From Chlamydiota bacterium (GTDB lineage: Bacteria; Chlamydiota; Chlamydiia; Chlamydiales; Rhabdochlamydiaceae), in contig JABDFI010000003.1 in NCBI GenBank assembly GCA_013286595.1, positions 1-64,000 on the forward strand: a DNA stretch of 64,000 nt, written 5' to 3'. Both the position numbers and the translations under genes were made by a program. Each line of letters starts with the position of its first letter. Positions within the stretch are counted from its first letter, which is position 1. The notes beneath the pieces were generated by a model. That model was given only the letters and a program-made list of their open reading frames with translations. It was not told the origin of the DNA and ran no database searches. Positions 11,412 to 47,473 of the stretch are shown here, in pieces.

Positions 11412-11591
11412 GAGGCAATTGCAAAACTCCACGCCACAGCAAAATCGCCCTTTTGAGCCATTTTGCCACCCCATCTCCGAGCCCTACCCGCTTGGAGTAT
11501 GTGCTCGGGGATGGGGCACGGCCGATTAAGCTGATAGCAAGCTGGCTCAAAACCATCGATTTTTCTGGGTCGGGCAGTTTTGCAATGGCCT
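11412..11591. repeat. Long form of the GAGGCAATTGC repeat (C1, ~180 bp)
   Basis: GAGGCAATTGCAAAACT…AGTTTTGCAATGGCCTC ends; interior highly similar to 47299-47473. Confidence 0.85.
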
Positions 11592-11601
11592 CTGAAGAAT
11601 C

Positions 11602-12012
11602 TCAGCATCCCATGCCTGACATGAGGACGGAAGGAATGAGGGAGTCGGGTTTTAACGTGTAGACTTTGTTCGGGATGATCTCGACCCAATTGGTGTGAAA
11701 ATCGGGCTCCTCACCCTCTTTTGACCAAACTAGGACTCTAAAGTACTCGGCTTTTTGGGGAATGGTCATTTCCATTTTTCCCAACCGGGTTAAAAATTGC
11801 ATTGTGCTTTGATTTAATTTTGCCCCAGAAATGAGAGCCTGATTCCCTTCTTCAACTTCTTTGGCAGAATTGGCCCATTGAATCGCAATTTTCGAGTTCT
11901 GGTTTTTTTGAGGATAGTTGGTGAAATTTTCTAGGATGAGATTGTCACAAAATCCTTCAGCTGTGAGTAGGAATGCAACGATTACAAGTAGAAATTTTGG
12001 TAACTGGTTCAT
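11602..12012 (-). CDS. Hypothetical protein with signal peptide
   Basis: 136 aa; N-terminus MNQLPKFLLVIVAFLLTAEGFC. Confidence 0.6.
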   Translation of the reverse strand: MNQLPKFLLVIVAFLLTAEGFCDNLILENFTNYPQKNQNSKIAIQWANSAKEVEEGNQALISGAKLNQSTMQFLTRLGKMEMTIPQKAEYFRVLVWSKEGEEPDFHTNWVEIIPNKVYTLKPDSLIPSVLMSGMGC

Positions 12013-12024
12013 TTAACTATCCTC

Positions 12025-13227
12025 TTATTCAATGGTGATTCCTTCTTGAGGAGTGCATTCAGCATCTAAATTGATCGGTGGGGCTACGAGGGGGAAAGTT
12101 CCTTCAGTGCAAAGAGTCAACGGTTTTCCTGTTCCTTTAAAAGGCTCCTTTGGAATGTGGACTGTGACGTTTTTAATCACATTGACTGCCTCTGCAATTT
12201 CAAAATCGCCGACCATACTTAGAAATTGATAGCTTTCTTCAGGAGAGAGCCCTTGTGTGCGCACGAGGAAGTCAATTGCATTTCTAGAGGCGAGTTTCAT
12301 CGCCTCAAAAAGATCGACATTCAAACCGACAATCATCCAGTGAGTGGCATTCTCAATGATCGGCCATGTAAAGACGTTAGCTCCTTTTCTTTTTGTTTTG
12401 TCTGAGACTCCCTCTGCTTTGAGATCTTTTCTGACGATAAATTGGAACGTGATCGATTCATAGGAGGTTTCGAGGGCGGTGATATCGATCTCGCCGTTGC
12501 TCTGCATTGCGTGGGAATCTCCTGTCCAAACGAGGCCTCCCTTTTGGAAGACAGGAAGGAAAATAATGGAGCCTGCTTGCAGCTCAGGCTGATCGAGATT
12601 GCCGCCAAACGGTCCTGGCGGAACAGAATTAAACTCTCCTTTGACAGGTTGACACATCGGAGTGGGGATATTTACAGGCCAACTTTCTGGCCAGTCGAGG
12701 GGTGGTGCAACGGCTAAAACGCCGGGAAAAGGTTTCAGGTGTAAGCAAACCCCTTTTGTAAATTCCGTTGTATTGTTTTGCTTGTTATATTTGAAATACT
12801 TAATCCGCGGCTTAGTGAACTCAGATAAAATTCCTTGGGTAGGACTTAAGAAATTGTATCCCCAATCATTCAGCTTAATGTCGAGAATTCTGATTTCTAA
12901 TACATCTCCCGGTTCAGCTTCTTCTATGTACACAGGGCCCGTTAGCGAGTGCATCCCTCGTCTTTTTTGAATGTTGTTGGCAATGTAGAATTTGGCTACA
13001 TCTGCAGGAGTTGTTTTATTGTAGACCATCTCATGAAGGCAACTATTCCAAGTTTCCATTGAGACACTATCGCCGGATTTGATTGTCACAACCGGTTTTT
13101 GATTAAGAGTAAAGAGTCCAAGCGTTACCGTTTCCTTAGTAGCCGGAACCGTATATGTTTTCCCCATGAGTGAGGAAAGGGGAAGTATCATTGCTGAAAT
13201 CAAAAAGAGAAGATGCCCGTTTTTCAC
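12025..13227 (-). CDS. Acetamidase/formamidase family protein, exported
   Basis: PGDVLEIRILDI, PPGPFGGNLDQPELQAGSIIFLPV, GLVWTGDSHAMQSNGEI; N-terminal signal peptide. Confidence 0.85.
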   Translation of the reverse strand: MKNGHLLFLISAMILPLSSLMGKTYTVPATKETVTLGLFTLNQKPVVTIKSGDSVSMETWNSCLHEMVYNKTTPADVAKFYIANNIQKRRGMHSLTGPVYIEEAEPGDVLEIRILDIKLNDWGYNFLSPTQGILSEFTKPRIKYFKYNKQNNTTEFTKGVCLHLKPFPGVLAVAPPLDWPESWPVNIPTPMCQPVKGEFNSVPPGPFGGNLDQPELQAGSIIFLPVFQKGGLVWTGDSHAMQSNGEIDITALETSYESITFQFIVRKDLKAEGVSDKTKRKGANVFTWPIIENATHWMIVGLNVDLFEAMKLASRNAIDFLVRTQGLSPEESYQFLSMVGDFEIAEAVNVIKNVTVHIPKEPFKGTGKPLTLCTEGTFPLVAPPINLDAECTPQEGITIE

Positions 13228-13308
13228 TTCAATTCACTCCTTTTCATCAAAATTTAATATGTAATATTTTTTGGAGCTAAATGCAAGCTTGAATAAGACG
13301 AATTAGTT

Positions 13309-14040
13309 TTACTTGTAAATCATTTTAATAGTCATGCCACCATCCGCAATGAAGTTTTGTCCTGTGATGAAGGCTGCTTTATCAGAGATTAGGAAACTAA
13401 CGAGATGGGCTATGTCTTCAGGTTTTCCGACACGACCTACTGGATGAACTTCATGATCTTTCTTGGTGATTTTCATATGATGATTATCAATCCATCCAGG
13501 ACTGATGCAATTAACCCGAATATCAGGTGCTAAGCTGATGGCTAGCTCATGGGTGAGTGCTACAAGACCGCCTTTGGAGGCAGCATAGGGTTCGCAATTG
13601 CCTTCAGATTGCAGAGCGCGAGTCGAAGCTATGTTGATAATGCTTCCTTTGTGCTTGCGTAGGTGTGGGGCTGCGTATTTCGAGGTTAAAAAAGCGCCTG
13701 TTAGGTTAGTCGCAATGTAGTCATTCCAGGTTTTTAGCGTGATTTTTTCAAATACAGCGTGTTCATCAGGAAGAATTCCGGCGTTGTTGACGAGATAGTC
13801 GAGTCTGCCGAAATGGTTGATTCCGCGCTTGATCATCTGTTTGATAGAGGTCTCTTTTTTTACATCAGTTTTGATGATGAGCAATCGATCATGTTCTTTC
13901 AAGTTGAAATTTTTAGATTCGGGGTGCAATTCTGCCACAATGACATGCATATTTTGTGATAGAAGGTGCAGAGCGATCTCAGCGCCTATTCCTTGGCCAC
14001 CGCCTGTAACAATAGCTACTTTTGCGTTTTTATCTTTCAT
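13309..14040 (-). CDS. Short-chain dehydrogenase/reductase
   Basis: TGGGQGIGAEIA, NNAG, YAASKGG, PGWI motifs. Confidence 0.9.
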   Translation of the reverse strand: MKDKNAKVAIVTGGGQGIGAEIALHLLSQNMHVIVAELHPESKNFNLKEHDRLLIIKTDVKKETSIKQMIKRGINHFGRLDYLVNNAGILPDEHAVFEKITLKTWNDYIATNLTGAFLTSKYAAPHLRKHKGSIINIASTRALQSEGNCEPYAASKGGLVALTHELAISLAPDIRVNCISPGWIDNHHMKITKKDHEVHPVGRVGKPEDIAHLVSFLISDKAAFITGQNFIADGGMTIKMIYK

Positions 14041-14177
14041 CCAATTGACGACAAGGAAACCCCGCTATGTAAGGCTGGGAGGAATTGCCGCTCCTCTATT
14101 CTGTTGTTTATAAAATAATGTTTAGACATTATTTCTGCACTAAGAAATGGACCATTAGCCTCAAACTTAAGGTGTGT

Positions 14178-14227
14178 CCAATCTTATGATCGACGAGCGC
14201 CAGCGAGTTAATCACAAGATTGGGCAA
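14178..14227. terminator. Imperfect hairpin downstream of the F-box/LRR gene
   Basis: CCAATCTTATGATC…AATCACAAGATTGG inverted arms just after the stop. Confidence 0.4.
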
Positions 14228-14229
14228 AG

Positions 14230-15294
14230 TCAAGGTTTTCCCTTAAAAGCTTTTACAGCATCCAAGGTAATTCCCGAATAATCTAGTTTAAGTGATGTAA
14301 GTGATGTGAGTTTTGATAGATGAGCAACAAGGCGGGCATCTTCTCTGATGTTGTGGCAGGAGCTTAGATCAAGTGAGCTTAAGAGTGTGAGTTTTGATAG
14401 ATGGACAAGGCCAATACCTGTGATGTTTTCGCAGGCGCTTAGGTTGAGTGATCTTAGAGATGTTAGTTTTGATAGATAGGCAAGGTCAGCATCTGTGATA
14501 TCGGAGCTGCTTAGATCAAGTGAGCTTAAGAGTGTGAGAGTTACTAGATGGTCAAGGCCAACATCTGTGATGTCGCAGCCGCTTAGGTGGAGTGATCTTA
14601 GAGATGTGAGTTTTGATAGATCGTCAAGGTCAGCATCTGTGATGCTTCCAAATCTATACTGATATAGATCAAGTGAGGTTAGAGAGGTGAGTTTTGATAG
14701 AGGGGCAAGGCCATCATCTGTGATGTTTACGATCTGGTTTAGACTAAGTGAGCTTAAGAGTGTGAGTGTTGATAGGTTGGCAATGCCAGCACTTGTGATC
14801 TTTCTACACCTTCTTAGATTAAGTGAGGTTAGAGAGGTGAGTCCTGATAGATGGGCAAGGCCAGCATCTGTGATCTTTCTACAACTATTTAGATCAAGTG
14901 ATCTTAGAGATCTGAGTTTTGATAAATGGGCGAGGCCAGCATCTGTGATGTTATAGCACTCAGATAGATTGATAGAGGTAATGCGAGTACCACTTGCTTT
15001 ATCAAGAATGGTTTTAAGATCGCTATCCGATAAATTGGCCAGTCCAGAAAGATCTAGACAGCCATCGTTGACGAGAGGGAGATTACGCCAATCTCGGCAT
15101 ACATGATGGATGCGAGTTATTTGTAGAGCTGGAAGAAAGCTTAATATGCGTTGGAAAACGTCGCTAGGGATACCCTTTATGCCAGTCGTTATGGGTTTAG
15201 GTGGAGTTTGTGAAGGGGCCAGCATAGGTGCTGCTGCCGCTGATAAAGTTAAAGGATCTAATCTTAAAGAACCTAAGCTGGTTAATGATGACAT
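14230..15294 (-). CDS. F-box and leucine-rich repeat protein
   Basis: F-box IKGIPSDVFQRILSFLPALQITRIHHVCRDWRNL then ~25-aa LRRs (LTSLxSLNLSxCxNITDAGLAHLSK). Confidence 0.9.
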   Translation of the reverse strand: MSSLTSLGSLRLDPLTLSAAAAPMLAPSQTPPKPITTGIKGIPSDVFQRILSFLPALQITRIHHVCRDWRNLPLVNDGCLDLSGLANLSDSDLKTILDKASGTRITSINLSECYNITDAGLAHLSKLRSLRSLDLNSCRKITDAGLAHLSGLTSLTSLNLRRCRKITSAGIANLSTLTLLSSLSLNQIVNITDDGLAPLSKLTSLTSLDLYQYRFGSITDADLDDLSKLTSLRSLHLSGCDITDVGLDHLVTLTLLSSLDLSSSDITDADLAYLSKLTSLRSLNLSACENITGIGLVHLSKLTLLSSLDLSSCHNIREDARLVAHLSKLTSLTSLKLDYSGITLDAVKAFKGKP

Positions 15295-15754
15295 TGTTAA
15301 ACCTCCTAATTTGCAATTAGTATTATTATATTTATTATGTCAATTCATGTGTAGTATTATTTTTATTTGATTTTTATTATTTATTTATTTAAATTAAATA
15401 ATTTTAATTATAAATCTAGAGCGGGAAAATTTATAAATATTCACCAACCTCCTGCGTCGGCAGGTGAAAAAAAAGGGATCTAAAAACCTTTGCCTCAGAA
15501 ATAAGAGGAGGCAGGGTCTTTAACGTAAAAGACTGATCTTTGGCCGCTCACTTGGAATTTTCTCAAAAGAGCCGAAGGAAGCGCTGCTCAAAGAGACTCC
15601 TCTAGATAACTAGCAGGAAATTATTTGATTTTTCTTGTTCTACATTTAGAAATGCAGTTATTTAATTTAAATAAATAGTGAAAAGTTTAATCTTTAAATA
15701 AAATGTAGGTTACATATATAATGCAAACACTCATCACAACCAGGAGATTAAGCA

Positions 15755-17206
15755 ATGTCATTATCGGGCTTAGTTACTTTAACTTTACAAGCCACCGCGC
15801 AGCCAACGTCTGTGCTTGCTCCTCCACAAACTACACCTAAACCCATAACGACTGGCATAAAGGGTATCCCTAGCGACGTTTTCGGACGCATATTAAGCTT
15901 TCTTCCAGCTCTACAAATAACTCGCGTGCATCATGTATGCCGAGATTGGCGTAATCTACCTCTCGTCAACGATGGCTGTCTAGATCTTTCTGGACTGGCC
16001 AATTTATCGGATAGCGATCTTAAAACGATTCTTGATAAAGCAAGTGGGACGCGCATTACCTCTATCAATCTATCTAATTGCAAGAAAATTACAGATGCTG
16101 GCCTTGCCCACCTATCAGGACTTACATCTCTAAGATCACTTAATCTAAGAGATTGCAGAACCATCACAGATGCTGGCCTTGCCCATCTATCAGGACTCAC
16201 CTCTCTAACCTCACTCAATCTAAGAGCCTGCTATGACATCACAAATGCTGGCATTGCCCATCTATCAAAACTCACACTCTTAAGTTCACTTAATCTAAGC
16301 TACTGCAGAAACATCACAAATGCTGGCATTGCCCATCTATCAAAACTCACACTCTTAAGTTCACTTGATCTAAGCGATTGCAGAAACATCACAGATGATG
16401 GCCTTGCCCATTTATCAGAACTCACCTCTCTAACCTCCCTTAATCTAAGCAACTGCACAAACATCACAGATGCTGATCTTGCCCATTTATCAGAACTCAC
16501 CTCTCTAACCTCCCTTAATCTAAGCAACTGCACAAACATCACAGATGCTGGCCTTGCCGATCTATCAAAACTCATACTCTTAAGCGCACTTGATCTAATG
16601 AGGTGCAAAAACATCACAGATGCTGGCCTTGCCGATCTATCAAAACTCACACTCTTAAGCTCACTTGATCTAAGCGAGTGCAGAAACATCACAGATGCTG
16701 GCCTTGCCCATTTAGCAACTCTCACGTCTCTAACCTCACTCAATCTAAAGGACTGCGAGGACATCACAGATGCTGGCCTTGCCGATCTATCAAAACTCAC
16801 ACTCTTAAGATCACTTAATCTAAATAGGTGCACAAACATCACAGGTGCTGGCCTTGTCCATCTAGCAACTCTCACATCTCTAACCTCACTTAATCTAGGC
16901 AATTGCTCTCGGATCTCAGATGCTGGCCTTGCCCATCTAGCAACTCTCACATCTCTAAGATCACTTGATCTAACCTTGTTATGTAGGATCACAGATGCTG
17001 GCCTTGCCCATCTTTTAGCAACTCTCACATCTCTAACCTCACTTAATCTAAGCAGGTGCTGGAACATCACAGATGCTTGTCTTGCCGATCTATCAAAACT
17101 TAAATCTCTCAGATCACTTGAGCTAAACGGATGCTCTATGATCACAGATGCTGGCCTTGCCCATCATCTATCAACCAGACGTGTAAATATTCTGAAAACC
17201 TATTGA
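15755..17206 (+). CDS. F-box and leucine-rich repeat protein
   Basis: Same F-box N-terminus as 14230-15294; long LRR array with a near-perfect 75-bp unit duplication. Confidence 0.9.
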   Translation: MSLSGLVTLTLQATAQPTSVLAPPQTTPKPITTGIKGIPSDVFGRILSFLPALQITRVHHVCRDWRNLPLVNDGCLDLSGLANLSDSDLKTILDKASGTRITSINLSNCKKITDAGLAHLSGLTSLRSLNLRDCRTITDAGLAHLSGLTSLTSLNLRACYDITNAGIAHLSKLTLLSSLNLSYCRNITNAGIAHLSKLTLLSSLDLSDCRNITDDGLAHLSELTSLTSLNLSNCTNITDADLAHLSELTSLTSLNLSNCTNITDAGLADLSKLILLSALDLMRCKNITDAGLADLSKLTLLSSLDLSECRNITDAGLAHLATLTSLTSLNLKDCEDITDAGLADLSKLTLLRSLNLNRCTNITGAGLVHLATLTSLTSLNLGNCSRISDAGLAHLATLTSLRSLDLTLLCRITDAGLAHLLATLTSLTSLNLSRCWNITDACLADLSKLKSLRSLELNGCSMITDAGLAHHLSTRRVNILKTY

Positions 17207-17233
17207 GGTTTAAAGCCGGAAGTCAATGAAATT

Positions 17234-21320: not shown

Positions 21321-21346
21321 GAGGCAATTGCAAAGCTTTCCGCCCC
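21321..21346. repeat. Half-copy of the GAGGCAATTGC repeat
   Basis: GAGGCAATTGCAAAGCTTTCCGCCCC, resembles the left end of 47299-47473. Confidence 0.6.
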
Positions 21347-23898: not shown

Positions 23899-23918
23899 GG
23901 TGCAGAGGCAGTTGCAAA

Positions 23919-25338: not shown

Positions 25339-26681
25339 ATCCCAAGTAGCCTTTGATATTTTTCAACTAGCTCTGGCGAGGTGGTGATCAGTGCATCATC
25401 GGTGAGTTTATTCTCTTTTCCTAAGATGACTTGTTGAGGTTTTACTAAAGTAAGATACAGTGTGTTCAATCGGTTGTAGCAGTATTGTTGAACCCACTCT
25501 CTGGCATCTTTTCTATGTTGAAGGTACTTGTCGTAATTTTCATACATGTCGAGAAGAGCTTGAACCACTTCCTCTTCTGTACAATCATAACAAACTCCAT
25601 AAGTGTTGTTAAATCCCACATTAAAAGCGGGCATTTCGATCTGGCAGGGGATGGCTCGTGTTAAATGGCTCTTGCATAATGTGGTTTGAGCGGTATTATC
25701 TGTGAGAAGAGTAGGGATTCCCAAAGCCATGGCTTCTCGAGGTTGAATAGAAAAACCCTCTCCTGTTGATAGGCTTACATAACAATCTAGCCCTTCAAAT
25801 ATCTTAAGATAGTCTTGTTTATCTAGTGTGCCCTCTGTGAATTCGACATTTGTCATTCCAAATTGTTCGATAGTTGCAAGAATATCTTCTCTATAATCTG
25901 GATCGCTATAGCGACTATTAATTCTCAACTTGACTTGACTAGAATTCCCAAAGGCTAAATAAAAGCAGCGTATGAGTTTCAATTGGTTTTTACGCGAAAC
26001 TGCTGAACTGAGATTGCCAAATACAAAAGGAACATTGCATTGGGATTTGAGGGGTTTTTCTAAAAAATCATTGAGATTAAGTCCTAAAGGAAGCTCAAAG
26101 ATGGGGATATTGACTCCGCTATTTAGATAGACCTCCTGAAGAAATCGATCGGGGACTGCAATGGCATCAAAATAGGCATTGAATGTTTCAACCCATTCTG
26201 GAGGTATTTGACTTGCTTCATACATAGAATAGGCGATTCTTATCTCATGCTTATTTTTGAGCGTTTTGATCTTTTTTGAGACTTTATGTCCTTTGAGATC
26301 CAGCACATCTTCAAAGATAACAACTTTTCCTAAAGGGGGAGTGAGAGCTTTAAAGTATCCCAAAAATTTGGGATGTTTAGTATAGGTTACAATGGAGTGG
26401 ATACTTATCGGAACGCCTTCTAGGGAATAACCCCCACAAGGGATAAAATGGATATCAACCTCGTCTTTTAAAGCTTCGATCAATTCACCCGCTTGCCGTC
26501 CAATCCCATCCGCCATTCGCAAAGGACCAATGACGGTTAGATGGGGTTGTTTAAGAGGCTTTAGATAAGCATATAACAACCACGATGTAAGAGCAATGGC
26601 TGCCAGAGTGAGAATCTTTTTATTCCACATAGAAAACTCAGAAATTCTTAGAGGCAATTGCAAACTCCCCGACCCAGACAA
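25323..26681 (-). CDS. Glycosyltransferase, GT4/GT1-like
   Basis: FGNLSSAVSRKNQLKLIRCF … GLDCYVSLSTGEGFSIQPREAMALGIPTLLTDNTAQ; probable start is the internal MWNKKIL (~26630). Confidence 0.8.
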   Translation of the reverse strand: MSGSGSLQLPLRISEFSMWNKKILTLAAIALTSWLLYAYLKPLKQPHLTVIGPLRMADGIGRQAGELIEALKDEVDIHFIPCGGYSLEGVPISIHSIVTYTKHPKFLGYFKALTPPLGKVVIFEDVLDLKGHKVSKKIKTLKNKHEIRIAYSMYEASQIPPEWVETFNAYFDAIAVPDRFLQEVYLNSGVNIPIFELPLGLNLNDFLEKPLKSQCNVPFVFGNLSSAVSRKNQLKLIRCFYLAFGNSSQVKLRINSRYSDPDYREDILATIEQFGMTNVEFTEGTLDKQDYLKIFEGLDCYVSLSTGEGFSIQPREAMALGIPTLLTDNTAQTTLCKSHLTRAIPCQIEMPAFNVGFNNTYGVCYDCTEEEVVQALLDMYENYDKYLQHRKDAREWVQQYCYNRLNTLYLTLVKPQQVILGKENKLTDDALITTSPELVEKYQRLLGIHNNL

Positions 26682-26732
26682 ATCGATGATTTTAAGCCAT
26701 TTTGTTGGGTCGGAGAATTTTGCAATTGCCTC
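26651..26732. repeat. Short-interior form of the GAGGCAATTGC repeat (C3, 82 bp)
   Basis: GAGGCAATTGCAAACTCCCCGACCCA … TGGGTCGGAGAATTTTGCAATTGCCTC. Confidence 0.85.
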
Positions 26733-29319: not shown

Positions 29320-30483
29320 ATGCTACCTATTATTTTATTAGGGGTGATGATCGCAGCTGGATGGATCAGCCCGTATTTACCTCTTAGTTTTAACTCAGTC
29401 GTATATAGCTTAAGCTTATCGATTAAGTCTGTCATTGTCTTCCTACTGCCTTTACTCATCTTTTGTCTTTTATTTAAAACAGCAGTGCACTTAGCCAAGA
29501 CGGCTACAAGAATGATGGTATTCTTGATTGTTGGAGTATGTGTGTCCAATTTTATTTCCACCCTAGTGAGTTATGGCGTAGGCACGTGGATTTATGATTT
29601 AGATTTTTCCATGGTGTTGCCCGATCGTTTAGATCAACTAACTCCTGCATGGACACTTCAATTGCCTACATGGATAAGAAATGATTACGCTTTATTTGGA
29701 GGGGTGGTGTTGGGGATTGTTTTAGCTAAGTTCAAACCGAAGGCGGCTCATAGAATTGCCCAGGTCATGGAGAAGGCGATCCGAGGGATTTTAAACGTGT
29801 TTCTTGTATTGATTCCTCTCTTCATTGCGGGATTTGTGATTAAACTCAGTCATGATCGCGTGTTATCCTATATGTTGAGCAATTACGCCTTGATCTTAGG
29901 GATCGTCGCAGGAGCAGTGCTTTTGTATGTGATGTTGATCTACTTCCTAGCCAATCGCTTGCAATGGAAAAATTTCATCCGCTGTCTACACAACATGTTG
30001 CCAGCTGCCCTCACAGGTTTAGGGAGTATGTCGAGTGCTGCAGCCATGCCCATGACGATTGTGGGCACTGAAAAGAACTCTCAGGACCCAACACTTGCTC
30101 GCGCTGTCATTCCCGCTACGGTGAACATCCATTTGATTGGGGATTGTTTTGCCATTCCCATTTTCGCTTTTGCCATCTTGAAAACCTTTGGCGTAGCAGA
30201 ACCTACTTTTTTTGCTTATTTGGGTTTTGCTTGCTATTTTGTGTTGGCAAAATTTTCTGTGGCCGCAGTTCCAGGCGGAGGAATTCTGGTCATGCTACCC
30301 ATTTTAGAAAAGCAATTGGGATTCAATGCCGAGATGCTGTCGTTAATCACAGCCTTGTACGTTCTCTTCGATCCTATCATCACGTGTGCCAATGTACTTG
30401 GCAATGGAGGCTTTGCTTTAGGTATGAGTAGACTCGTGCAATCTAAAAATGCTAGATTAACGAGGCAATTGCCTCTAACGTGA
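29320..30483 (+). CDS. Dicarboxylate/amino acid:cation symporter (SDF family)
   Basis: MSSAAAMPMTIVGTEKN…IPATVNIHLIGDCFAIPIFA typical of DAACS transporters. Confidence 0.85.
   Translation: MLPIILLGVMIAAGWISPYLPLSFNSVVYSLSLSIKSVIVFLLPLLIFCLLFKTAVHLAKTATRMMVFLIVGVCVSNFISTLVSYGVGTWIYDLDFSMVLPDRLDQLTPAWTLQLPTWIRNDYALFGGVVLGIVLAKFKPKAAHRIAQVMEKAIRGILNVFLVLIPLFIAGFVIKLSHDRVLSYMLSNYALILGIVAGAVLLYVMLIYFLANRLQWKNFIRCLHNMLPAALTGLGSMSSAAAMPMTIVGTEKNSQDPTLARAVIPATVNIHLIGDCFAIPIFAFAILKTFGVAEPTFFAYLGFACYFVLAKFSVAAVPGGGILVMLPILEKQLGFNAEMLSLITALYVLFDPIITCANVLGNGGFALGMSRLVQSKNARLTRQLPLT
30458..30480. repeat. Short palindromic repeat TAACG-AGGCAATTGCCTC-TAACG at the 3' end of the symporter CDS
   Basis: Encodes the last residues (TRQLPLT); matches 6971-6993. 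Confidence 0.75.
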
Positions 30484-32489: not shown

Positions 32490-32503
32490 GAGGCGATTGC
32501 CTC
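32490..32503. repeat. Short palindrome GAGGCGATTGCCTC
   Basis: 14-bp palindrome, one mismatch; adjacent to repeat D. Confidence 0.65.
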
Positions 32504-35324: not shown

Positions 35325-37193
35325 ATGACATCTATCAACTTAGTCCCTTTAACACTACAACCTACAGTGCAGCCAGCGTCTGTACAGGATGAATCACCAG
35401 CAGCTCCAAAGCAAGCAACAACGACCAACATAAAGGCTCTTCCTAGCGCCATTTTTGGACGTATATTAAGCTTCGTTCCTGGTGCACAGATAATCCGCAT
35501 GCATCATGTTTGCAGTGAATGGCGCAATCTATCCCTTATCAACGACGGCTGTCTAGATCTGTCTAACCCGACCAATTTACTGTCTAACTCGACCAATTTA
35601 TCGGATAAAGATCTTAAAAGCATTCTTGATCAAGCAAAAAGCGCTCGCATTACATCTATCAATCTATCTAATTGCCCAAACATCACAGATGCTGGCCTTG
35701 TCCATCTAGCAACTCTCAAATCTCTAACTTCACTCAATCTAAGCAGATGCCCAAACATCACAGATGCTGGCCTTGTCCATCTAGCAACTCTCAAATCTCT
35801 AACTTCACTCAATTTAAGCGGGTGCCCAAACATCACAGGTGCTGGCTTTCCCCCTTTAGTAACTCTCACATCTCTAATCTCCCTTGATCTAAGCTGGTGC
35901 AAAAACATCACCGATGCTGGCCTTGCCCATTTAGTAACTCTCACATCTCTAATCTCCCTTGATCTAAGCTGGTGCCCAAACATCACAGATGCTGGCCTTG
36001 CCCATCTAGTAACTCTCACACTCTTAAGCTTACTTGATCTAAACGGGTGCACAAACCTCACAGATGCTGGCCTTGCCCCTTTAGGTACTCTCGCATCTCT
36101 AACCTCACTCAATTTAAGCAGGTGCACAAACATCACCGATGCTGGCCTTGCCCATCTAGCAAAACTCAAATCTCTAACCTCACTCAATCTAATCAGTTGC
36201 AAGAACATCACAGATGTTGGCCTTGCCATTCTAGAAACTCTCACACTCTTAAGCTCACTCGATCTAGGCGGGTGCACAAACATCACAGATGTTGGCCTTA
36301 CCCATCTATTAAAACTTACATCTTTAAGCTCACTCAATCTGAGCGGGTGCCCAAACATCACAGATGCTCGCCTTGCCCCTTTAGTAACTCTCACATCTCT
36401 AACCTCCCTTGATCTAAGCTGGTGCGAAAACATCACCGATGCTGGCCTTGCCCATCTAATAACTCTCCCACTCTTAAGCTCACTTGATCTAAACGGGTGC
36501 AGAAACATCACAGATGCCGGCCTTGCCCCTTTAGTAGCTCTCATATCTTTAACCTCACTCAAGCTAAGCAGTTGCGATAAGTTCACAGATGCTGGCCTTG
36601 CCCATCTAGCAAAACTCAAATCTCTAACCTCACTCAATCTAACCCGTTGCAAGAACATCACAGATGCTGGCCTTGCCCATCTAGTAACTCTCAGAATCTC
36701 ACTTGAGCTAAAATGGTGTAAGAACATCACATCGGGTGTTGTAGAAGCTTTCAAGAAGCAACTCATTCCGATTGAATTTAAAGATGCCGCATTTAGAGAT
36801 AGTATGGATTATTATATCTACATGCTAGCTTCAGAGCCAAAAGGAGGCGCTGAGTGGGGAAAAAAGAACCGTTATGTTGATTTCGACCGTCTGAGATTGG
36901 CGCAAGCACTTGCTGCTTTGAAAATGTCACGTCCAGTTTTTTTTGAAGAATTATCGATCGACCCTTTGCTGGAGCTCATCAATCAACCACATTCTACTCA
37001 TCAGCAAATCGATCTTTTATTGCACAAGTTACCGGAAGAGACAAGAAATGCAATTTTCGGTCAGGTTTATCAACTAGCCCCTGAGCCGAAAGGGGGAGAT
37101 AAATGGGGAGAATTGCATTGCTTTGATGATCCAGCGCGATTTAGGTTAGCTGTGATCGAGGTGATCAAGAATCGCGTTCTTCCTCTTTTGTAA
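35325..37193 (+). CDS. F-box/LRR protein with C-terminal duplicated module
   Basis: F-box IKALPSAIFGRILSFVPGAQIIRMHHVCSEWRNL, ~17 LRRs, C-terminus with two PKGG-x-x-WG motifs; paralogue of 37353-39122. Confidence 0.92.
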   Translation: MTSINLVPLTLQPTVQPASVQDESPAAPKQATTTNIKALPSAIFGRILSFVPGAQIIRMHHVCSEWRNLSLINDGCLDLSNPTNLLSNSTNLSDKDLKSILDQAKSARITSINLSNCPNITDAGLVHLATLKSLTSLNLSRCPNITDAGLVHLATLKSLTSLNLSGCPNITGAGFPPLVTLTSLISLDLSWCKNITDAGLAHLVTLTSLISLDLSWCPNITDAGLAHLVTLTLLSLLDLNGCTNLTDAGLAPLGTLASLTSLNLSRCTNITDAGLAHLAKLKSLTSLNLISCKNITDVGLAILETLTLLSSLDLGGCTNITDVGLTHLLKLTSLSSLNLSGCPNITDARLAPLVTLTSLTSLDLSWCENITDAGLAHLITLPLLSSLDLNGCRNITDAGLAPLVALISLTSLKLSSCDKFTDAGLAHLAKLKSLTSLNLTRCKNITDAGLAHLVTLRISLELKWCKNITSGVVEAFKKQLIPIEFKDAAFRDSMDYYIYMLASEPKGGAEWGKKNRYVDFDRLRLAQALAALKMSRPVFFEELSIDPLLELINQPHSTHQQIDLLLHKLPEETRNAIFGQVYQLAPEPKGGDKWGELHCFDDPARFRLAVIEVIKNRVLPLL

Positions 37194-37352
37194 AGCGATG
37201 GGCTAAAGAGGCAATTACAAACGAAGAACTCGATTATTATTACATGTAGGCAGTCATTATATTCATTAAATTATATAATAAAATCTTTAATATTTAAATA
37301 AAATAAAATAACGCATATAATTGAGTTGTAATTAAAAATAATAGGTTTAATA

Positions 37353-39122
37353 ATGACATCTATCAACTTAGTCCCTTTAACACTACAACCTACAGTGCAG
37401 CCAGCGTCTGTACAGGATGAATCGCCAGCAGCTCCAAAGCAAGCAACAACGATCAACATAAAGGATCTTCCTAGCGCGATTTTTGGACGTATATTAAGCT
37501 TCGTTCCTGGTGCACAGATAATCCGCATGCATCATGTTTGCAGTGAATGGCGCAATCTATCCCTTATCAACGACGGCTGTCTAGATCTGTCTAACCTGAC
37601 CAATTTATCGGATAAAGATCTTAAAAGCATTCTTGATCAAGCAAAAAACGCTCGCATTACATCTATCAATCTAAGCAGATGCCCAAACATCACAGATGCT
37701 GGCCTTGTCCATCTAGCAACTCTCAAATCTCTAACTTCACTCAATCTAATCGGGTGCCCAAACATCACAGATGCTGGCCTTGCCCATTTAGTAACTCTCA
37801 CCTCTCTAACCTCACTTATTCTAAGCTGGTGCGAAAACATCACCGATGGTGGTCTTGCCCATCTAGCAACTCTTAACTCTCTAACCTCCCTTGATCTAAG
37901 CTGCTGCAGAAACATCACCGATGCTGGCCTTGCTCATCTATCAAAATTCCCATCTCTAAGCTCACTTGATCTAACCGGGTGCACAAACATCACCGATGCT
38001 GGCCTTGCCCATCTATCAAAACTCACATCTCTAAGCTCACTTGATCTAAACGGTTGCAAGAACATCACAGATGCTGGCCTTGCCCATCTAATAACTCTCA
38101 CATCTCTAACCTCACTCAATCTATGCGGTTGCAAGAACATCACAGATGCTGGCCTTGCCCATCTAATAACTCTCACATCTCTAACCTCACTCAATCTATG
38201 CGGTTGCAAGAACATAACAGATGCTGGCTTTGCCCATCTAATAACTCTCACACTCTTAAGCTCACTTAATCTAACCGGGTGCACAAACATCACAGATGCT
38301 GGCCTTGTCCACCTATTAAAACTCACATCTCTAACCTCACTTAATCTAACCGGGTGCACAAACATCACAGATGCTGGCCTTGCCCATCTAATAACTCTCC
38401 CACTCTTAAGCTCACTTAATCTAAACGGGTGCAATATCACAGATGCCGGCCTTGTCCCTTTAGTAGCTCTCACATCTTTAACCTCACTCAACCTAAGCAG
38501 GTGCGATAAATTCACAGATGCTGGCCTTGCCCATCTATCAAAACTCAAATCTCTAACCTCACTCAATCTAACCTTTTGCAAGAACATTACAGATGCTGGC
38601 CTTGCTCATCTAGTAACTCTCAGAATCTCACTTGAGCTACAATGGTGTAAGAACATCACATCGGGTGTTGTAGAAGCTTTTAAGAAGCAGCTCATTCCGA
38701 TTGAATTTAAAGATGCCGCATTTAGAGATAGTATGGATTATTATATCTACATGCTGGCTTTAGAGCCAAAAGGAGGCGCTGAATGGGGAAAAAAGAACCG
38801 TTATGTTGATTTCGACCGTCTGAGGTTGGCGCAAGCACTTGCTGCTTTGAAAATGTCACGTTCAGCTTTTTTTGAAGAACTATCGATCGACCCTTTGCTG
38901 GAGCTCATTAATCAACCACATTCTACTCATCAGCAAATCGATCTTTTATTGCACAAGTTATCGGAAGAGACAAGAAATGCAATTTTCGGTCAGGTTTATC
39001 AACTAGCCCCTGAGCCGAAAGGGGGAGATAAATGGGGAGAATTGCATTGCTTTGATGATCCAGCGCGATTTAGGTTAGCTGTGATCGAGGTGATCAAGAA
39101 TCGCGTTCTTCCTCTTTTGTAA
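37353..39122 (+). CDS. F-box/LRR protein with C-terminal duplicated module (tandem paralogue)
   Basis: N- and C-terminal parts almost identical to 35325-37193. Confidence 0.92.
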   Translation: MTSINLVPLTLQPTVQPASVQDESPAAPKQATTINIKDLPSAIFGRILSFVPGAQIIRMHHVCSEWRNLSLINDGCLDLSNLTNLSDKDLKSILDQAKNARITSINLSRCPNITDAGLVHLATLKSLTSLNLIGCPNITDAGLAHLVTLTSLTSLILSWCENITDGGLAHLATLNSLTSLDLSCCRNITDAGLAHLSKFPSLSSLDLTGCTNITDAGLAHLSKLTSLSSLDLNGCKNITDAGLAHLITLTSLTSLNLCGCKNITDAGLAHLITLTSLTSLNLCGCKNITDAGFAHLITLTLLSSLNLTGCTNITDAGLVHLLKLTSLTSLNLTGCTNITDAGLAHLITLPLLSSLNLNGCNITDAGLVPLVALTSLTSLNLSRCDKFTDAGLAHLSKLKSLTSLNLTFCKNITDAGLAHLVTLRISLELQWCKNITSGVVEAFKKQLIPIEFKDAAFRDSMDYYIYMLALEPKGGAEWGKKNRYVDFDRLRLAQALAALKMSRSAFFEELSIDPLLELINQPHSTHQQIDLLLHKLSEETRNAIFGQVYQLAPEPKGGDKWGELHCFDDPARFRLAVIEVIKNRVLPLL

Positions 39123-39166
39123 AGCAATTACTTCCTTATCCAACTTTTCGGGCAGGGATAGGGAAG

Positions 39167-41844: not shown

Positions 41845-43310
41845 TCAGCCCTCAAAGGAACATAGGGGGAATTGTAACCGCCGCCTAATGCTTTAATGAG
41901 TTTGATGGTAGCTAAGTACTGACTATAGACTAAATTAACTTGTTCTAGTTCTTTATAGATCAATGCTTCTCGGTAATTGTAATTGTCCAGTAGATTATCG
42001 AGGCCCGATTGTTGCCGCAGAGCTGTCAGGTCATAGCGCTCTTGAGCATCGTTGACAATCTGTCGCTGTTTTTCTTGCTGATCGTAAACCGATTGCACGA
42101 GAACTAAGGTATCAGCAACTTCTTGAGCACTGCGCAAGATCAGTTCGTTGTAGGTATAGACGGCATCGTCGAACAAGGCTTTTTTTGCTTTGATGTTGGC
42201 ACGGATAGCGCCCGCAGTGAAAATGGGTAGATGAATGGCAGGCATCAACCCTGCAGTTCGACTACTCGAGTGAAAGAGAAGTGAATATAAGGTGCTTTCA
42301 ACGCCAGCGAATGCCGCGAGGTTGATGCTGGGGAAAAAGTCAGCTTTTGCTGCTCCTACTTCATGAGCGAGTGCTTCCACGCGCCAAATTTGGGCCATTA
42401 AATCGGGGCGTCGCGCTAAAAGATCGAGAGACAAATTACACGGCAACGATAGACTTTTCAAAGGTTTGATGAGGGAAGGGTCGAGCTCAATAGGGCTATC
42501 AGGACCTTTTCCTAGAAGAGCATTCATTAGATGCTTATCAACAGCTATCTCCTCTTGAATACCAATTAATAGCTTCTCAGCTTCCAACCATTGTTCTCGT
42601 GAAAGCAAGGGGGGCAGTTTCGAGGCAAGGGCTTGTGAGGCCAGTAACGTGTCTAGTTGATAGAGATCATAGCGCAATTGAACTAGTTGTTCATACAATT
42701 GCTCTCGAATGAGATTCGTTTTAAGAGCGAAATAGGCTTGAGCTACAGAGGTGGTGATGATGAGGCCTACCTGCGCTGCCTCTGCCTCTTGAGTTTTTGC
42801 CTGTCCTAGCGCTGCTTGATACAAGTTATAATTCTTACCCCAAAAATCAAATTCGTAGGTGAAAGACAGGGTTAAATCGATCAAATTGGGATTGATGGGA
42901 ACCGTGGGATTCAATGCTCTGTAAAGTCCATTGTGGCTTAAGTATTCCCAGGTCTCATTGGCATCGAAAAAAATCAAGGGGAAGAGGCGGGCTTTATTGA
43001 TAGTGGCAAGCTGTTTAGCATAATCAATGCGCCGTTCAATCCCTTGCAAGGAGGGGTTCTGCTGGAGAGCTTCAGCGATGAGTGCGTTGAGATCGTGAGC
43101 TTCGAAGATTTCCCACCAGTTTGTTTCTGGCCATTCTCCTTCTACAAAGAGAGAGCTTTTGAAGCTGTTGTTAGCGCTTGTCTCCAGGGAAGGAGGGCAG
43201 AGGAGATTTTCGGTTTGCTGATCATGGGGTAAAGACACGCAACTTGATAATAGAATTAATCCCCATGCAATCCATTTATTATTATAAATAGAAGTTCGTG
43301 GATAATTCAT
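41841..43310 (-). CDS. Outer-membrane efflux factor (NodT/OprM-type lipoprotein)
   Basis: Lipobox-like ILLSSCVS, EANWWE, RRPDLMAQIWRVEALAHEVGAAKADFFPSINLAA. Confidence 0.88.
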   Translation of the reverse strand: MNYPRTSIYNNKWIAWGLILLSSCVSLPHDQQTENLLCPPSLETSANNSFKSSLFVEGEWPETNWWEIFEAHDLNALIAEALQQNPSLQGIERRIDYAKQLATINKARLFPLIFFDANETWEYLSHNGLYRALNPTVPINPNLIDLTLSFTYEFDFWGKNYNLYQAALGQAKTQEAEAAQVGLIITTSVAQAYFALKTNLIREQLYEQLVQLRYDLYQLDTLLASQALASKLPPLLSREQWLEAEKLLIGIQEEIAVDKHLMNALLGKGPDSPIELDPSLIKPLKSLSLPCNLSLDLLARRPDLMAQIWRVEALAHEVGAAKADFFPSINLAAFAGVESTLYSLLFHSSSRTAGLMPAIHLPIFTAGAIRANIKAKKALFDDAVYTYNELILRSAQEVADTLVLVQSVYDQQEKQRQIVNDAQERYDLTALRQQSGLDNLLDNYNYREALIYKELEQVNLVYSQYLATIKLIKALGGGYNSPYVPLRAE

Positions 43311-43448
43311 GTATCTTACTCATTCAGTATAATTATCTTGTTAGATTAACTGAATTGAGTTGTCAAGATAATTAGACCTCTTTCCTTGCCCGAAAAATTT
43401 AATTGGGCAAGGGCACGGGCAGGGGCACGGGCAAGGAAATGAATAATA

Positions 43449-43475
43449 CAAGAAGGTCTTTCGACCTTCTTGCAA
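43449..43475. terminator. Hairpin AAGAAGGTC TTTC GACCTTCTT
   Basis: Perfect short stem between the efflux operon and speE-like gene. Confidence 0.6.
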
Positions 43476-43483
43476 GGTGAGGA

Positions 43484-44404
43484 TTATGAAGATGTTGTTA
43501 GATCTTCTAAAAACTTAGGGAGGACAAAGGAGGCGTTGTGGATTTTCGGTGTGTAATACTTCAAATCTCCGATCATAGTAGCTTCCATTCTTTCTTTGAG
43601 CGTAGCTACATCAATCTCACGTGCATGAGGATTATTTGTCGCCCAACCAAAGCTCATGAATCCACCTACATAAGTAGGGACGGGAGCTAAGTAGAAGTTG
43701 GCATCTGCGAATAGATTGCTTAAATGACCATGTGTTTCTACCATCTCGTCTGTCTGCATGAAAGGAACACCACACTGATTGACGAAGATTCCGTCTGAAT
43801 TGAGGATGTTTTTAATGCGGCTAAAGTACTCTGGAGTGAATAGTACAGTACCAGGACCAATCGGATCAGTAGAGTCACAAATGATGACATCAAAGGTTTC
43901 ATCTGTTGTTCCTGCATACTCAAAGGCATCTTGGATCACGACGCGTAAGCGTGGATCATCGTAAGAGCCATTAGAATGCTTGGGGAAATAGTGTTTGCAC
44001 AGGTCGATCACGCGGGCGTCGATTTCAACGAGAACGATCTCTTCTACATTACTATGCTTGACAACTTCACGCAGTGTTCCACCATCGCCACCGCCTACAA
44101 TTAACACTTTTTTGGCGTTGCCGTGTGCAAGGATGGGTACGTGAGTGATCATTTCGTGGTAGACGAATTCATCTTTTTCTGTGGTTTGGATCACACCGTC
44201 TAGGGCAAGAACTTTTCCAAAGGCTTGATTTTCAAAAATGACCATATGTTGCACGTCATTTTTCTCTTCAAATAGGACCTTCGACATTTCAAAGGATTGT
44301 CCCCAATGTGGGTAAAGACTTTCTGTGTATACTTCTTTAGCGAAGGATAAACAGGGAATGGCGCATGCCAATGCAAGTGCAAGGATAGGTTTTTTTACTT
44401 TCAT
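43484..44404 (-). CDS. speE: Spermidine synthase family protein with N-terminal signal peptide
   Basis: VLALDGVIQTTEKDEFVYHEMITHVPI, VLIVGGGDGGTLREVVKH, DVIICDSTDPIGPGTVLFTPEYF; N-terminus MKVKKPILALALACAIPCLSFAK. Confidence 0.88.
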   Translation of the reverse strand: MKVKKPILALALACAIPCLSFAKEVYTESLYPHWGQSFEMSKVLFEEKNDVQHMVIFENQAFGKVLALDGVIQTTEKDEFVYHEMITHVPILAHGNAKKVLIVGGGDGGTLREVVKHSNVEEIVLVEIDARVIDLCKHYFPKHSNGSYDDPRLRVVIQDAFEYAGTTDETFDVIICDSTDPIGPGTVLFTPEYFSRIKNILNSDGIFVNQCGVPFMQTDEMVETHGHLSNLFADANFYLAPVPTYVGGFMSFGWATNNPHAREIDVATLKERMEATMIGDLKYYTPKIHNASFVLPKFLEDLTTSS

Positions 44405-44662
44405 TCTCTAATCTCCTACTGTAAAACACCGACAACCCGGTAAGGCTGACATTTTTAACAAATCGACGCATAAAAATAAAGACAATTTAAAGATTTATTT
44501 AAGTGCTGAATTGTCTAATCGACTGAACATGAGCGTTTTTATGGAAAAAGCACGCCTCATTTTTATGAAAAAAATGTAGCGTGCCTATGAAGAATTATGG
44601 CCCATCCAAAAAATGAGGAGTTAATAAATGTTTGACTTATTTACGGCGATACGGCGCACTCT

Positions 44663-44815
44663 CTAGCGGATGATTTCTATTTCTCCTTGATTGGCATTGC
44701 CAGTAGGTCCGAGTACTTCTGGGTAACGGTTCAGGTAGTCAAAGTAGGAGTCTAGAGAGGACGCAGCATAACTTAAGGTAGTGCATGTGATGAACAAGAG
44801 ATGAAACAATCGCAT
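44663..44815 (-). CDS. Putative small secreted protein, 50 aa (not in ORF track)
   Basis: MRLFHLLFITCTTLSYAASSLDSYFDYLNRYPEVLGPTGNANQGEIEIIR*; signal-peptide-like N-terminus. Confidence 0.5.
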   Translation of the reverse strand: MRLFHLLFITCTTLSYAASSLDSYFDYLNRYPEVLGPTGNANQGEIEIIR

Positions 44816-44834
44816 GAATTTATAATAGTTGTAG

Positions 44835-45797
44835 TTAGTGAAGGAGTTGATCGGTAGCTGTTGCTAATGCTTGTGCTATGGCAGGGTCATTCGATGAATG
44901 ACCACCATCGTCGATCATCCATAATAAGCTGTTGTTCCAGGTGCGATGTAGTGAGAAGGCCATATCAGGAAGACAGATGGCGTCCCATCGCCCATGGACG
45001 ATGATGCTGGGTAAATGAGAGATTCTATCCATCCTCGAAAGAATCTGATTGGGCTCTATAAAAAAATCGTGTTTACAGTAGTGAAAGAAGGCTTTGCTTG
45101 TGCTGAAAGCTATGGAGTCGTTACGTTGAATTGCTTCGATCATTTCTGGTTGAGGAAGATGGGTAGCGCAAATCGTATCGTAGAGCATGAATTCTCGCAT
45201 GGCTTGCCTTTGGATCTCGGGATTCGAGTCAAAAATTCTTCGATAATAAGCCTCAAAGAGATCTCTTCTTTCCTCTTCAGGAATAGCTTGGACAAGGCGC
45301 TCATAAGCTTCGGGGAAAATTTTCCCCATCCCCTGGAAAAGATGAAGATAGTCTGCTCGTCTTGCCAAAAAGATCCCGCGTAGGATGAACCCCAAACATC
45401 TTTCAGGGAATTCTTGTCCATACAGTAGAGCTAAAGTTGATCCCCAAGAACCACCAAACACAAACCATCTGTCGATGTGAAGATGTTTTCTTAACGTTTC
45501 TATGTCTTGAATCGAGTGCTGGGTAGAATTCTCTTCCATGCAGCCAAGAGGCTGAGAGCGCATCGCCCCTCTTTGATCGAACATGACCACATTCCAACGT
45601 TCAGGATCAAAAAACCGGGAGATGCTGTCAGTACAGCCATAACCGGGACCTCCATGCAAGACGATCACAGGCATTCCTTGCGGGTTGCCGTAAAGAGCAT
45701 AATGTAGAGTGTGAAGAGAGGAAACCTTTAGGGTGCCTTCTTCTCTGGACTGACTGACAGGGTAAAGAGGATGTTCCACATGCATCGCGATATCCAT
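44835..45797 (-). CDS. pip: Prolyl iminopeptidase (alpha/beta hydrolase)
   Basis: VLHGGPGYGCTDSISRFFDPERWNVVMFDQRG … FGGSWGSTLALLYGQ … HGRWDAICLP. Confidence 0.9.
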   Translation of the reverse strand: MDIAMHVEHPLYPVSQSREEGTLKVSSLHTLHYALYGNPQGMPVIVLHGGPGYGCTDSISRFFDPERWNVVMFDQRGAMRSQPLGCMEENSTQHSIQDIETLRKHLHIDRWFVFGGSWGSTLALLYGQEFPERCLGFILRGIFLARRADYLHLFQGMGKIFPEAYERLVQAIPEEERRDLFEAYYRRIFDSNPEIQRQAMREFMLYDTICATHLPQPEMIEAIQRNDSIAFSTSKAFFHYCKHDFFIEPNQILSRMDRISHLPSIIVHGRWDAICLPDMAFSLHRTWNNSLLWMIDDGGHSSNDPAIAQALATATDQLLH

Positions 45798-45902
45798 TGT
45801 GATTTATAGATGCTAGGGCCTATTCTAACGTTACCTAGTTGTAAAATACAATAATAAGTTATACAAAGGCTAATTGCCTTGATATAAAAGGAATATGCCC
45901 TT

Positions 45903-47300
45903 ATGAAACAGAAATCTCCCACACGCATTGAAAGCGATAGCATGGGAAACATGGAAGTGCCTCAAGATCGCTACTGGGGTGCTCAAACGGCGCGTTCGTT
46001 GGTTCATTTCACCATAGCTCCAGATACCATGCCTCCTAGTGTGATACGGGCATTTGGGATCATCAAAAAATCTGCAGCGCAAGTGAACAAGGACCTGGGA
46101 AAATTATCTGGCGAAAAAGCCGATTTCATCATTCAAGCTGCGGAAGAGGTGATTGCCGGAAAATTAGACGACCATTTCCCTTTGAGAATTTGGCAAACCG
46201 GTAGTGGCACACAGACAAACATGAATGCCAATGAGGTCATTGCTAATCGCGCCATTGAACAGGCAGGGGGGGTGATTGGCAGTAAGAAGCCCATCCATCC
46301 CAATGACGATGTCAACATGTCGCAATCTTCTAACGACACTTTCCCTACGGCGATGCACATCGCAGCTGCTGAGCAGATAACTCATCGCTTACTTCCAGCT
46401 CTTGACTACATGCGCAATGGACTTGCTAAAAAGATGCAGGAATTTGAGAATGTCATCAAAATTGGACGCACCCATCTCATGGATGCTGTTCCTCTTTCCT
46501 TAGGACAGGAAATCTCGGGGTATGTCCAACAACTCGATGAGGATAAAGAAAGGATACAACAAGCTTTACCCAAACTCTATGCTCTTGCACTTGGTGGGAC
46601 GGCTGTGGGGACGGGCTTGAACACACATCCCGCCTTTGCTGAAAAAGCTGCTGCCGCCATTGCAAAGAATACAGGCCTACCTTTTGTGTCTGCACCCAAT
46701 AAATTTGCAGTGATTGCAGCCCATGATGCTTTGGTGTTTGCTAGCGGAGCGTTAAAGACACTGGCCGTATCGCTGATGAAAATTGCAAGCGATTTTGCCT
46801 GGATGGGCTCTGGACCCAGATGCGGACTTTCAGAGTTATTGCTACCAGAAAATGAACCTGGATCTTCGATCATGCCCGGTAAAGTGAATCCGACGCAATG
46901 TGAAGCAATGGCGATGGCTTGCGTGCAAGTGATGAGCAACGATGTGGCCATTACTATTGCAGGATCTCAAGGGAATTTTGAACTGAACGTCTTTAAGCCG
47001 TTGATCATTTTTAATCTCATCAACTCGATACAATTAATCGCTGGATCTTGTGAACATTTCACCAAGTTCTTAGTAGAAGGCCTTCAGCCCAATCATAAGA
47101 AATTAGCTCAGTATGTCAGCCATTCGTTGATGTTGGTCACTGCTCTTGCCCCTAAAATTGGCTATGACAATGCGGCTAAAGTGGCGCATTTAGCCTTGGA
47201 AGAAGAGATTTCTCTTAAGCAAGCCTGTGTTCAATTGGGATTGCTCAAAGCTGAGGAGTTTGATCAGCTCGTTCAACCGCAGAAAATGATTAAGCCTTGA
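45903..47300 (+). CDS. fumC: Class II fumarate hydratase
   Basis: [49 protein letters not shown]. Confidence 0.95.
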
Positions 47301-47473
47301 GGCAATTGCAAAACTCCCCGCCACAGCAAAATCGCCCTTTTGAGCCATTTTGCTACCCGAGTCCTACTCGCTTGGAGTATGTGCTCGGGGATGGGGCTAC
47401 GGCCGCTTAAGCGGCTGGCAAACCGACTCAAAATCATCGATTTTTCCGGGTCGGAGAGTTTTGCAATTGCCTC
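47299..47473. repeat. Long form of the GAGGCAATTGC repeat (C2, 175 bp)
   Basis: Ends GAGGCAATTGCAAAACTCC / GGAGAGTTTTGCAATTGCCTC; interior similar to 11412-11591; left end overlaps the fumC TGA. Confidence 0.9.

What the first reader, a model, noticed from the sequence alone, without database searches (positions are those of the whole stretch)
11412..47473. Repeat family built on GAGGCAATTGCCTC: bare palindromes and expanded elements, mostly at gene ends
Seen directly: near-perfect 14-18 bp palindromes at 6975-6988, 30462-30475, 32490-32503, 54875-54892 and (variant) 62010-62025. Expanded forms start GAGGCAATTGCAAA and end TTTGCAATTGCCTC with 80-180 bp between (11412-11591, 26651-26732, 47299-47473). 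Half-sites occur at 21321, 23905 and 37208. Several touch stop codons (fumC TGA 47298-47300, pepF TGA 54876-54878, the symporter 3' end at 30483, and one base after the oxidase stop at 11410). Inference: short forms may be minimal or excision products and long forms full-length hairpin elements; they may supply stop codons or terminators.
Basis: partly seen in the sequence, partly recalled or inferred. Interest (0 to 1): 0.75.

Follow-up and report, generated by a model that had tools for sequence, protein, structure and literature searches.

The report
Hairpin transposons and their palindromic scars
The repeats are small DNA parasites (MITEs) that land in short T/A-rich sites, unusually often inside a gene's stop codon which their own first letters rebuild, and the bare 14-letter palindromes are the scars left when the inside of such a hairpin is lost.

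Summary
GAGGCAATTGC (up to 1 mismatch) occurs 197/190 times in this 2.14-Mb Chlamydiota-like draft genome against 4/13 for the reversed pattern. The long forms are a MITE family: near-perfect foldback hairpins of 73-183 bp, TIR GAGGCAATTGCAAAACTC, flanked by 4-bp target duplications (33 of 47 exact; at most 1 at shifted registers). Two related empty sites carry a single target copy.

The bare 14-mers carry the same 4-bp duplications (13 of 24 exact, about 0.1 expected). They equal what remains after deletion between the 8-bp GCAATTGC, which is self-complementary and therefore a direct repeat between the two inverted ends. They are collapse scars, comparable to nearly precise excision of Tn10, not minimal elements or terminators.

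Target consensus is TWWA. A native stop codon overlaps the target in 11 of 46 insertions (4% expected, p about 2e-6) and in 8 of 37 from other genomes. The element's 5'-GA rebuilds TAG or TGA.

The same TIR, around unrelated cores, occurs in MAGs labelled Lentisphaerae, Desulfobacterales and Syntrophus. No transposase partner was found. New family of a known kind.

The parts
11412..11592 (+). full-length MITE, 181 bp, TSD TGAA (11408-11411 / 11593-11596); the upstream oxidase gene's stop TGA lies in the left TSD copy
47299..47473 (+). full-length MITE, 175 bp, no intact TSD; its first two bases complete the fumC stop codon (T+GA)
   Evidence: RNA fold -86.6 kcal/mol, z -9.0
26651..26732 (-). 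short 82-bp hairpin form, TSD CTTA/CTTG (1 mismatch)
   Evidence: RNA fold -40.7 kcal/mol, z -9.1
6975..6988 (.). bare scar GAGGCAATTACCTC, exact TSD TAAC
30462..30475 (.). bare scar, exact TSD TAAC; 18-bp net insertion (14 + 4) keeps frame and adds RQLPLT to the symporter C-terminus just before its stop
32490..32503 (.). bare scar GAGGCGATTGCCTC, exact TSD TAAA
54877..54890 (.). bare scar, no intact TSD; supplies GA of the pepF stop TGA (54876-54878)
   Evidence: pepF assigned by TIGR00181
62011..62024 (.). bare scar GAGGCAGTTGCCTC, exact TSD CAAG; lies upstream of the probable true start of the following gene, since homologues begin near residue 30-37 of the mechanical ORF
21321..21334 (+). 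half-scar: intact outer 14 bp of one TIR, preceded by TAAA, then unrelated sequence
23905..23918 (+). half-scar GAGGCAGTTGCAAA preceded by TGCA
37208..37221 (+). half-scar GAGGCAATTACAAA preceded by TAAA

Best explanation
These are copies and relics of a non-autonomous foldback transposon (a MITE). Full copies (about 180 bp, with shorter 73-111 bp derivatives) are almost entirely self-complementary and end in GAGGCAATTGCAAAACTC. Shown: insertion duplicates 4 bp, target consensus TWWA, and native stop codons are hit more often than the motif predicts; the first bases of the element (G or GA) turn the interrupted codon back into TAG or TGA, so such insertions are probably harmless. Inferred: movement is driven in trans by a DDE-type transposase that I did not find. 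Inferred with strong support: the bare 14-mers arise after insertion. GCAATTGC is its own reverse complement, so it is present in the same orientation in both ends and acts as an 8-bp direct repeat at the base of the hairpin. Replication slippage or another RecA-independent deletion between the two copies removes everything else and leaves GAG-GCAATTGC-CTC inside the old 4-bp duplication. Less certain: half-sites come from rarer deletions between AAA inside one end and a TAAA-type target copy.
For: Target duplications: 33/47 full or short copies and 13/24 scars have exact 4-bp duplications, 0-1 at each shifted register, chance 0.004 per site, p about 3e-25 for scars. Exact 5-bp duplications are essentially absent (0 of 24 and 1 of 47), so the length is four. 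Related empty sites: L030 inserted into another repeat whose intact copy at C1:84250 has a single TTTA, and L044 against its own tandem copy with a single TTTA. Junction: GCAATTGC is the longest direct repeat between the halves of every copy with two consensus ends. Scar length is 14 only (18 sites); the 20-mer expected from the 6-bp TTGCAA repeat is absent. Sister family GAGGGAATTGC..., which lacks the 8-bp repeat, shows no equivalent 14-bp scar with a TSD, and one 21-bp product near its own TTGCAA repeat. Independent genomes: 5 of 8 exact scars have exact 4-bp TSDs and 2 more have 1 mismatch. A scar in G030 is absent from the orthologous region of congeners. Foldback: MFE -105 kcal/mol, z -12.3. 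Stop codons: 26/73 elements have a stop at -2..+1 against 2.6% of random intergenic positions; native stop in target 11/46 against 4.2% expected from motif and space; 8/37 in other genomes. In-frame scar at a gene end.
Against: No orthologous pair was found with a full element in one genome and a scar in the other, so the collapse step is inferred from the junction and the TSDs. No transposase gene between matching ends was found, so the mobilising enzyme is unknown. About half the scars lack an exact TSD (5 of 24 differ by one base, 6 by more), which fits decay but is not proof. The stop-codon excess rests on 19 events, and the correction for selection against promoter insertions is only approximate.
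Confidence: 0.87

Rival explanations
1. The scars are footprints of transposase-mediated cut-and-paste excision: the enzyme cuts the element out and the broken ends are joined at the GCAATTGC microhomology.
For: Gives the same sequence and keeps the TSD. Nothing here observes the enzyme or the host pathway.
Against: The scar retains 14 bp of both ends, more than a typical transposase footprint. The product follows the longest direct repeat and is absent in the sister family that lacks it, which points to replication slippage at the hairpin. Half-sites fit one-sided deletions rather than cleavage at both ends.
Confidence: 0.1
2. The bare palindromes are a functional motif in their own right, such as a protein binding site or short transcription terminators at gene ends, and the long forms are expansions of it.
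For: They form a perfect palindrome and lie mostly near gene ends.
Against: They sit inside 4-bp target duplications at unrelated sites, one lies inside a coding sequence as an in-frame addition, T-runs are not enriched next to them, and there is no Rfam match.
Confidence: 0.03
3. The excess at stop codons is only survivorship: insertions elsewhere are removed, and no targeting is involved.
For: Coding density is about 88%, and divergent (promoter-containing) spacers are depleted of elements (4 of 42 against 28% of intergenic bases).
Against: Survivorship predicts a broad excess downstream of genes. Observed stop offsets give 29 at the four positions -2..+1 but 13 over +2..+20, while motif preference explains only a 1.6-fold rise.
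Confidence: 0.35
4. The family is a REP/BIME-type repeat mobilised by a RAYT-type enzyme.
For: Short, palindromic, intergenic and in high copy number.
Against: It has long matched terminal inverted repeats and a fixed 4-bp TSD; REPs carry one-end GTAG/CGTC tags (PMC3733652, read only at abstract level), which are absent here.
Confidence: 0.01

Closest known systems
Bacterial MITEs (e.g. MITEAba12 of Acinetobacter, PMC6382973; Coxiella QMITEs and others reviewed in PMC10969869)
   Same: Short, non-coding, terminal inverted repeats, fixed-length target duplications, many copies, truncated derivatives.
   Different: 4-bp TWWA target instead of 9 bp for MITEAba12; excess of insertions in stop codons; a large set of collapsed palindromic scars; no known parent IS. 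The word 'stop codon' does not occur in the 2024 MITE review, and a string search for the TIR in PMC found only unrelated papers among the 20 of 28 listed.
Nearly precise excision of Tn10 (deletion between short direct repeats within inverted repeats; summarised in PMC12524634; original work known to me only from memory)
   Same: Hairpin-forming ends, deletion between short direct repeats located inside the ends, RecA-independent slippage model, a residual palindrome, target duplication kept.
   Different: Here the direct repeat exists because the end itself contains a self-complementary 8-mer, and the events are seen as more than twenty relics in a natural genome rather than selected in the laboratory.
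Repeat-mediated core deletion in Haloquadratum PATEs (PMC3119063)
   Same: A mobile element reduced to fused terminal sequences by recombination between repeats in its ends (22-bp repeat in HqIRS46).
   Different: PATEs are IS605-related, have no terminal inverted repeats and no TSD.
IS5-family terminal repeats (e.g. GGCTTTGTTGCACAAA of the ISAba12 relatives listed in PMC6382973)
   Same: A loose resemblance in the core TTGCA-AAA.
   Different: Different outer bases and 9-bp TSDs for that group; the DDE_Tnp_1 fragments in this genome do not have these ends. A resemblance only.

Membership tests
MITE | matched terminal inverted repeats | tested here: met
   GAGGCAATTGCAAAACTC at both ends, alignment of 28 paired copies; whole element folds back
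MITE | target-site duplication of fixed length | tested here: met
   4 bp, 33/47 exact, shifted registers 0-1, exact 5-mers 1/47
MITE | short, no transposase gene | tested here: met
   73-183 bp in the sample
MITE | high copy number at unrelated sites, with empty sites carrying one target copy | tested here: met
   about 170 first-look candidates, 40 scored as full copies; two paralogous empty sites
MITE | an autonomous element with the same ends supplies the transposase | tested here: inconclusive
   none found with PF01609, PF05598 or PF13359, nor beside unpaired ends in 75 loci; draft genome, 87% complete, 100 contigs
Nearly precise excision product (Tn10 type) | junction at a short direct repeat within the inverted repeats, target duplication retained | tested here: met
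   GCAATTGC junction, 14-bp length peak, 13/24 exact TSDs
Nearly precise excision product (Tn10 type) | arises by transposase-independent, RecA-independent slippage | not testable with these tools
   needs a genetic assay
Intrinsic terminator | G+C-rich hairpin followed by a run of T | tested here: not met
   scars 3/24, elements 10/47, random intergenic 19%
REP/BIME (RAYT-associated) | one-end GTAG/CGTC tag, no target duplication | tested here: not met
   4-bp TSDs and symmetric GAG ends

The most novel reading that the evidence does not exclude
A so far unidentified transposase, active across several bacterial phyla, recognises one nearly invariant 18-bp end around completely different hairpin cores and prefers translation stop codons, where the element's own GA restores the stop: a built-in harmlessness strategy for a bacterial transposon. 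Its ends also carry a self-complementary 8-mer, so inserted copies tend to collapse to an in-frame 18-bp scar.
Probability: 0.22. Interest if true: 0.72.

Novelty: new member of a known kind. Interest (0 to 1): 0.48.

Why it matters
It gives a clean natural record of what happens to hairpin transposons after insertion: more than twenty collapsed relics in one genome, about half with the target duplication still exact, so the ratio of full copies to scars can be used to study palindrome instability in obligate intracellular bacteria without genetics. The fit between target (stop codon) and element end (GA completes TAG or TGA) is a testable way for a transposon to avoid harm in a genome that is 88% coding. 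The same 18-bp end around unrelated cores in distant phyla points to a widespread transposase that has not been assigned. Practically, it explains a class of short palindromes that would otherwise be annotated as regulatory sites or terminators.

Tried and rejected
Autonomous partner: PF01609 gave an IS427-like element bounded by AAGAACCTGTTCAAAATCTC ends and an ISAs1-like fragment inserted in a sister MITE, neither with these ends; PF05598 gave one weak ORF; PF13359 gave one hit in another genome, without these ends. All-against-all comparison of ORFs beside ends in 75 loci from many phyla found no shared transposase, and Pfam scans of 20 ORFs beside unpaired ends found ordinary genes. Phage and plasmid collections: no match; viral contigs: one unpaired hit. 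Site C5:39533 (two mismatches) was rejected as a conserved coding match. The match at 9589 (three mismatches) is at chance level. The scar at 62011 first looked like an insertion in a coding sequence, but homologues start downstream, so it is probably in the leader. Terminator reading: tested and rejected. The comparison of a scar in G030 with congeners shows absence there, but the alignment is too diverged to read the exact empty site.
Full report
Observation. The window is contig 3 of a 2.14-Mb draft genome in 100 contigs, 87% complete. Matches to GAGGCAATTGC with at most one mismatch number 197 and 190 on the two strands, against 4 and 13 for the reversed pattern. A BLAST search with the 175-bp copy at 47299 scored 40 full-length copies among 169 first-look candidates. 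I took 764 kb of further stretches, 828 kb with the window, and worked on that plus the fetched loci.

The long forms are MITEs. Copies are 73-183 bp, mostly 180-183, with ends GAGGCAATTGCAAAACTC...GAGTTTTGCAATTGCCTC, and the whole element folds on itself (MFE -105 kcal/mol, z -12.3). They are flanked by 4-bp direct repeats: 33 of 47 non-redundant copies are exact, 6 more differ at one base, and shifted registers give 0 or 1. Two paralogous empty sites show the unfilled target with one copy of TTTA, one inside another repeat family and one in a local duplication. The target consensus, from 46 perfect duplications, is TWWA with a weak outer C/G.

The bare palindromes are scars of the same insertions. 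Genome-wide there are 17 exact GAGGCAATTGCCTC and 9 more with one mismatch. In my non-redundant set, 13 of 24 lie inside exact 4-bp duplications and 5 more inside duplications with one change, where about 0.1 exact is expected. In the window the duplications are TAAC (6975), TAAC (30462), TAAA (32490) and CAAG (62011); 54877 has none. The sequence is what one gets by joining the outer GAG of one end to the outer CTC of the other through GCAATTGC. Because GCAATTGC is its own reverse complement, it is the longest direct repeat between the two halves of all copies with consensus ends. A search for any spacing between GAGGCAAT and ATTGCCTC from 12 to 72 found 18 sites at 14 bp, one at 13 and none at 15-20, against 3 scattered control hits. 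The alternative junction at TTGCAA, which would give a 20-mer, is not seen. A sister family with ends GAGGGAATTGC lacks the 8-bp repeat; it yields no 14-bp scar with a TSD, and one 21-bp product at its TTGCAA. In other genomes carrying the family, 5 of 8 exact scars have exact duplications and 2 more are one base off. A scar in the congeneric set around G030 is absent from the orthologous region of the relatives.

Consequences of the scar length. Fourteen plus four is eighteen, so scars keep the reading frame. The scar at 30462 adds RQLPLT just before the stop of a symporter gene; removing the 18 bp gives a protein ending close to its paralogue.

Half-sites. Twelve unpaired ends in the sample keep the outer 14 bp and then run into unrelated sequence, including 21321, 23905 and 37208. 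Five of the twelve are preceded by TAAA against 9 of 92 duplication readings in intact elements (p about 0.01). This is what a deletion between CAAA inside the end and a TAAA target copy would leave. I treat it as secondary evidence.

Stop codons. Of 73 elements, 26 have a stop codon ending between two bases inside the element and one base before it, against 2.6% of random intergenic positions. Reconstructing the site before insertion shows that a native stop overlapped the 4-bp target in 11 of 46 perfect cases. Motif preference and available space predict 4.2% (p about 2e-6). An independent set from other genomes gives 8 of 37. In these cases the left duplication holds the whole stop, or T or TA, and the element's GA or G completes TGA or TAG. 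Selection must contribute, since promoter-containing spacers are depleted, but it should not produce a peak four bases wide.

Distribution. Eight of 47 genomes compared (own included) hold copies by BLAST. The cores are unrelated between these groups; only the ends agree. Taxon names are those of the records: two Verrucomicrobia-labelled MAGs (SZAS-10, SZAS-16) coincide with genomes placed in the same family as this one, so labels need care. Some single hits outside these groups are probably chance, since they lack a partner end.

What is missing. I did not find the transposase, nor a locus seen both full and collapsed. The first is expected for a draft genome with collapsed repeats but is still striking across 75 loci. 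The second would settle the collapse step.

Verdict. A new MITE family with an unusual after-life and an unusual taste for stop codons.

Noticed in passing
35035 (+) in the window; L114 1054; C7:13867, C4:29042, C15:1844, C5:28941, C9:180: A sister MITE family with ends GAGGGAATTGCAAAACTAACAAAA... (about 110 bp), one copy disrupted by an ISAs1-like element in L114.
   Followed up: partly
18076 (+) in the window; C1:84059-84275, C8:35661-35825, C13:29605-29848, L030: A third hairpin family with ends GAGACCATTGCATAAC, some copies with a long inner repeat (CATGATAAAAAACGAATGTGCGGCGAAGCCGCATGC...); one copy is the target of a GAGGCAATTG element.
   Followed up: partly
window 15951-17107, 35545-36797, 37530-38360: In-frame tandem repeats of exactly 75 bp (25 codons) in three genes, probably leucine-rich-repeat-like proteins; the third gene follows the second directly.
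   Followed up: no
C2:57000-58700 (L113): A broken IS427-like element (DDE_Tnp_1, frameshifted) bounded by AAGAACCTGTTCAAAATCTC ends, inserted next to fragments of the MITE families.
   Followed up: partly
L115 240-460 and 700-880: Another hairpin repeat with ends AACCCAACTTGCCCCC...GGGGGCAAGTTGGGTTA, present twice in 700 bp; the same end borders the truncated copy in L042.
   Followed up: no
50831-50853 in the window: GAGGCACTCAAATTGAGTGCCTC followed by TTTTAT: a likely ordinary intrinsic terminator that shares the GAGGCA start by chance.
   Followed up: no
L134, L159 (Syntrophus and Syntrophaceae MAGs): Elements with this family's ends enclose a core of the type GGTGTCACCCCCGCGGAAGCGGGGGTCCAG...TTCCCGCTTCTGCGGGAATGACA, a repeat sequence that looks familiar from other bacteria (from memory, not checked).
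   Followed up: no
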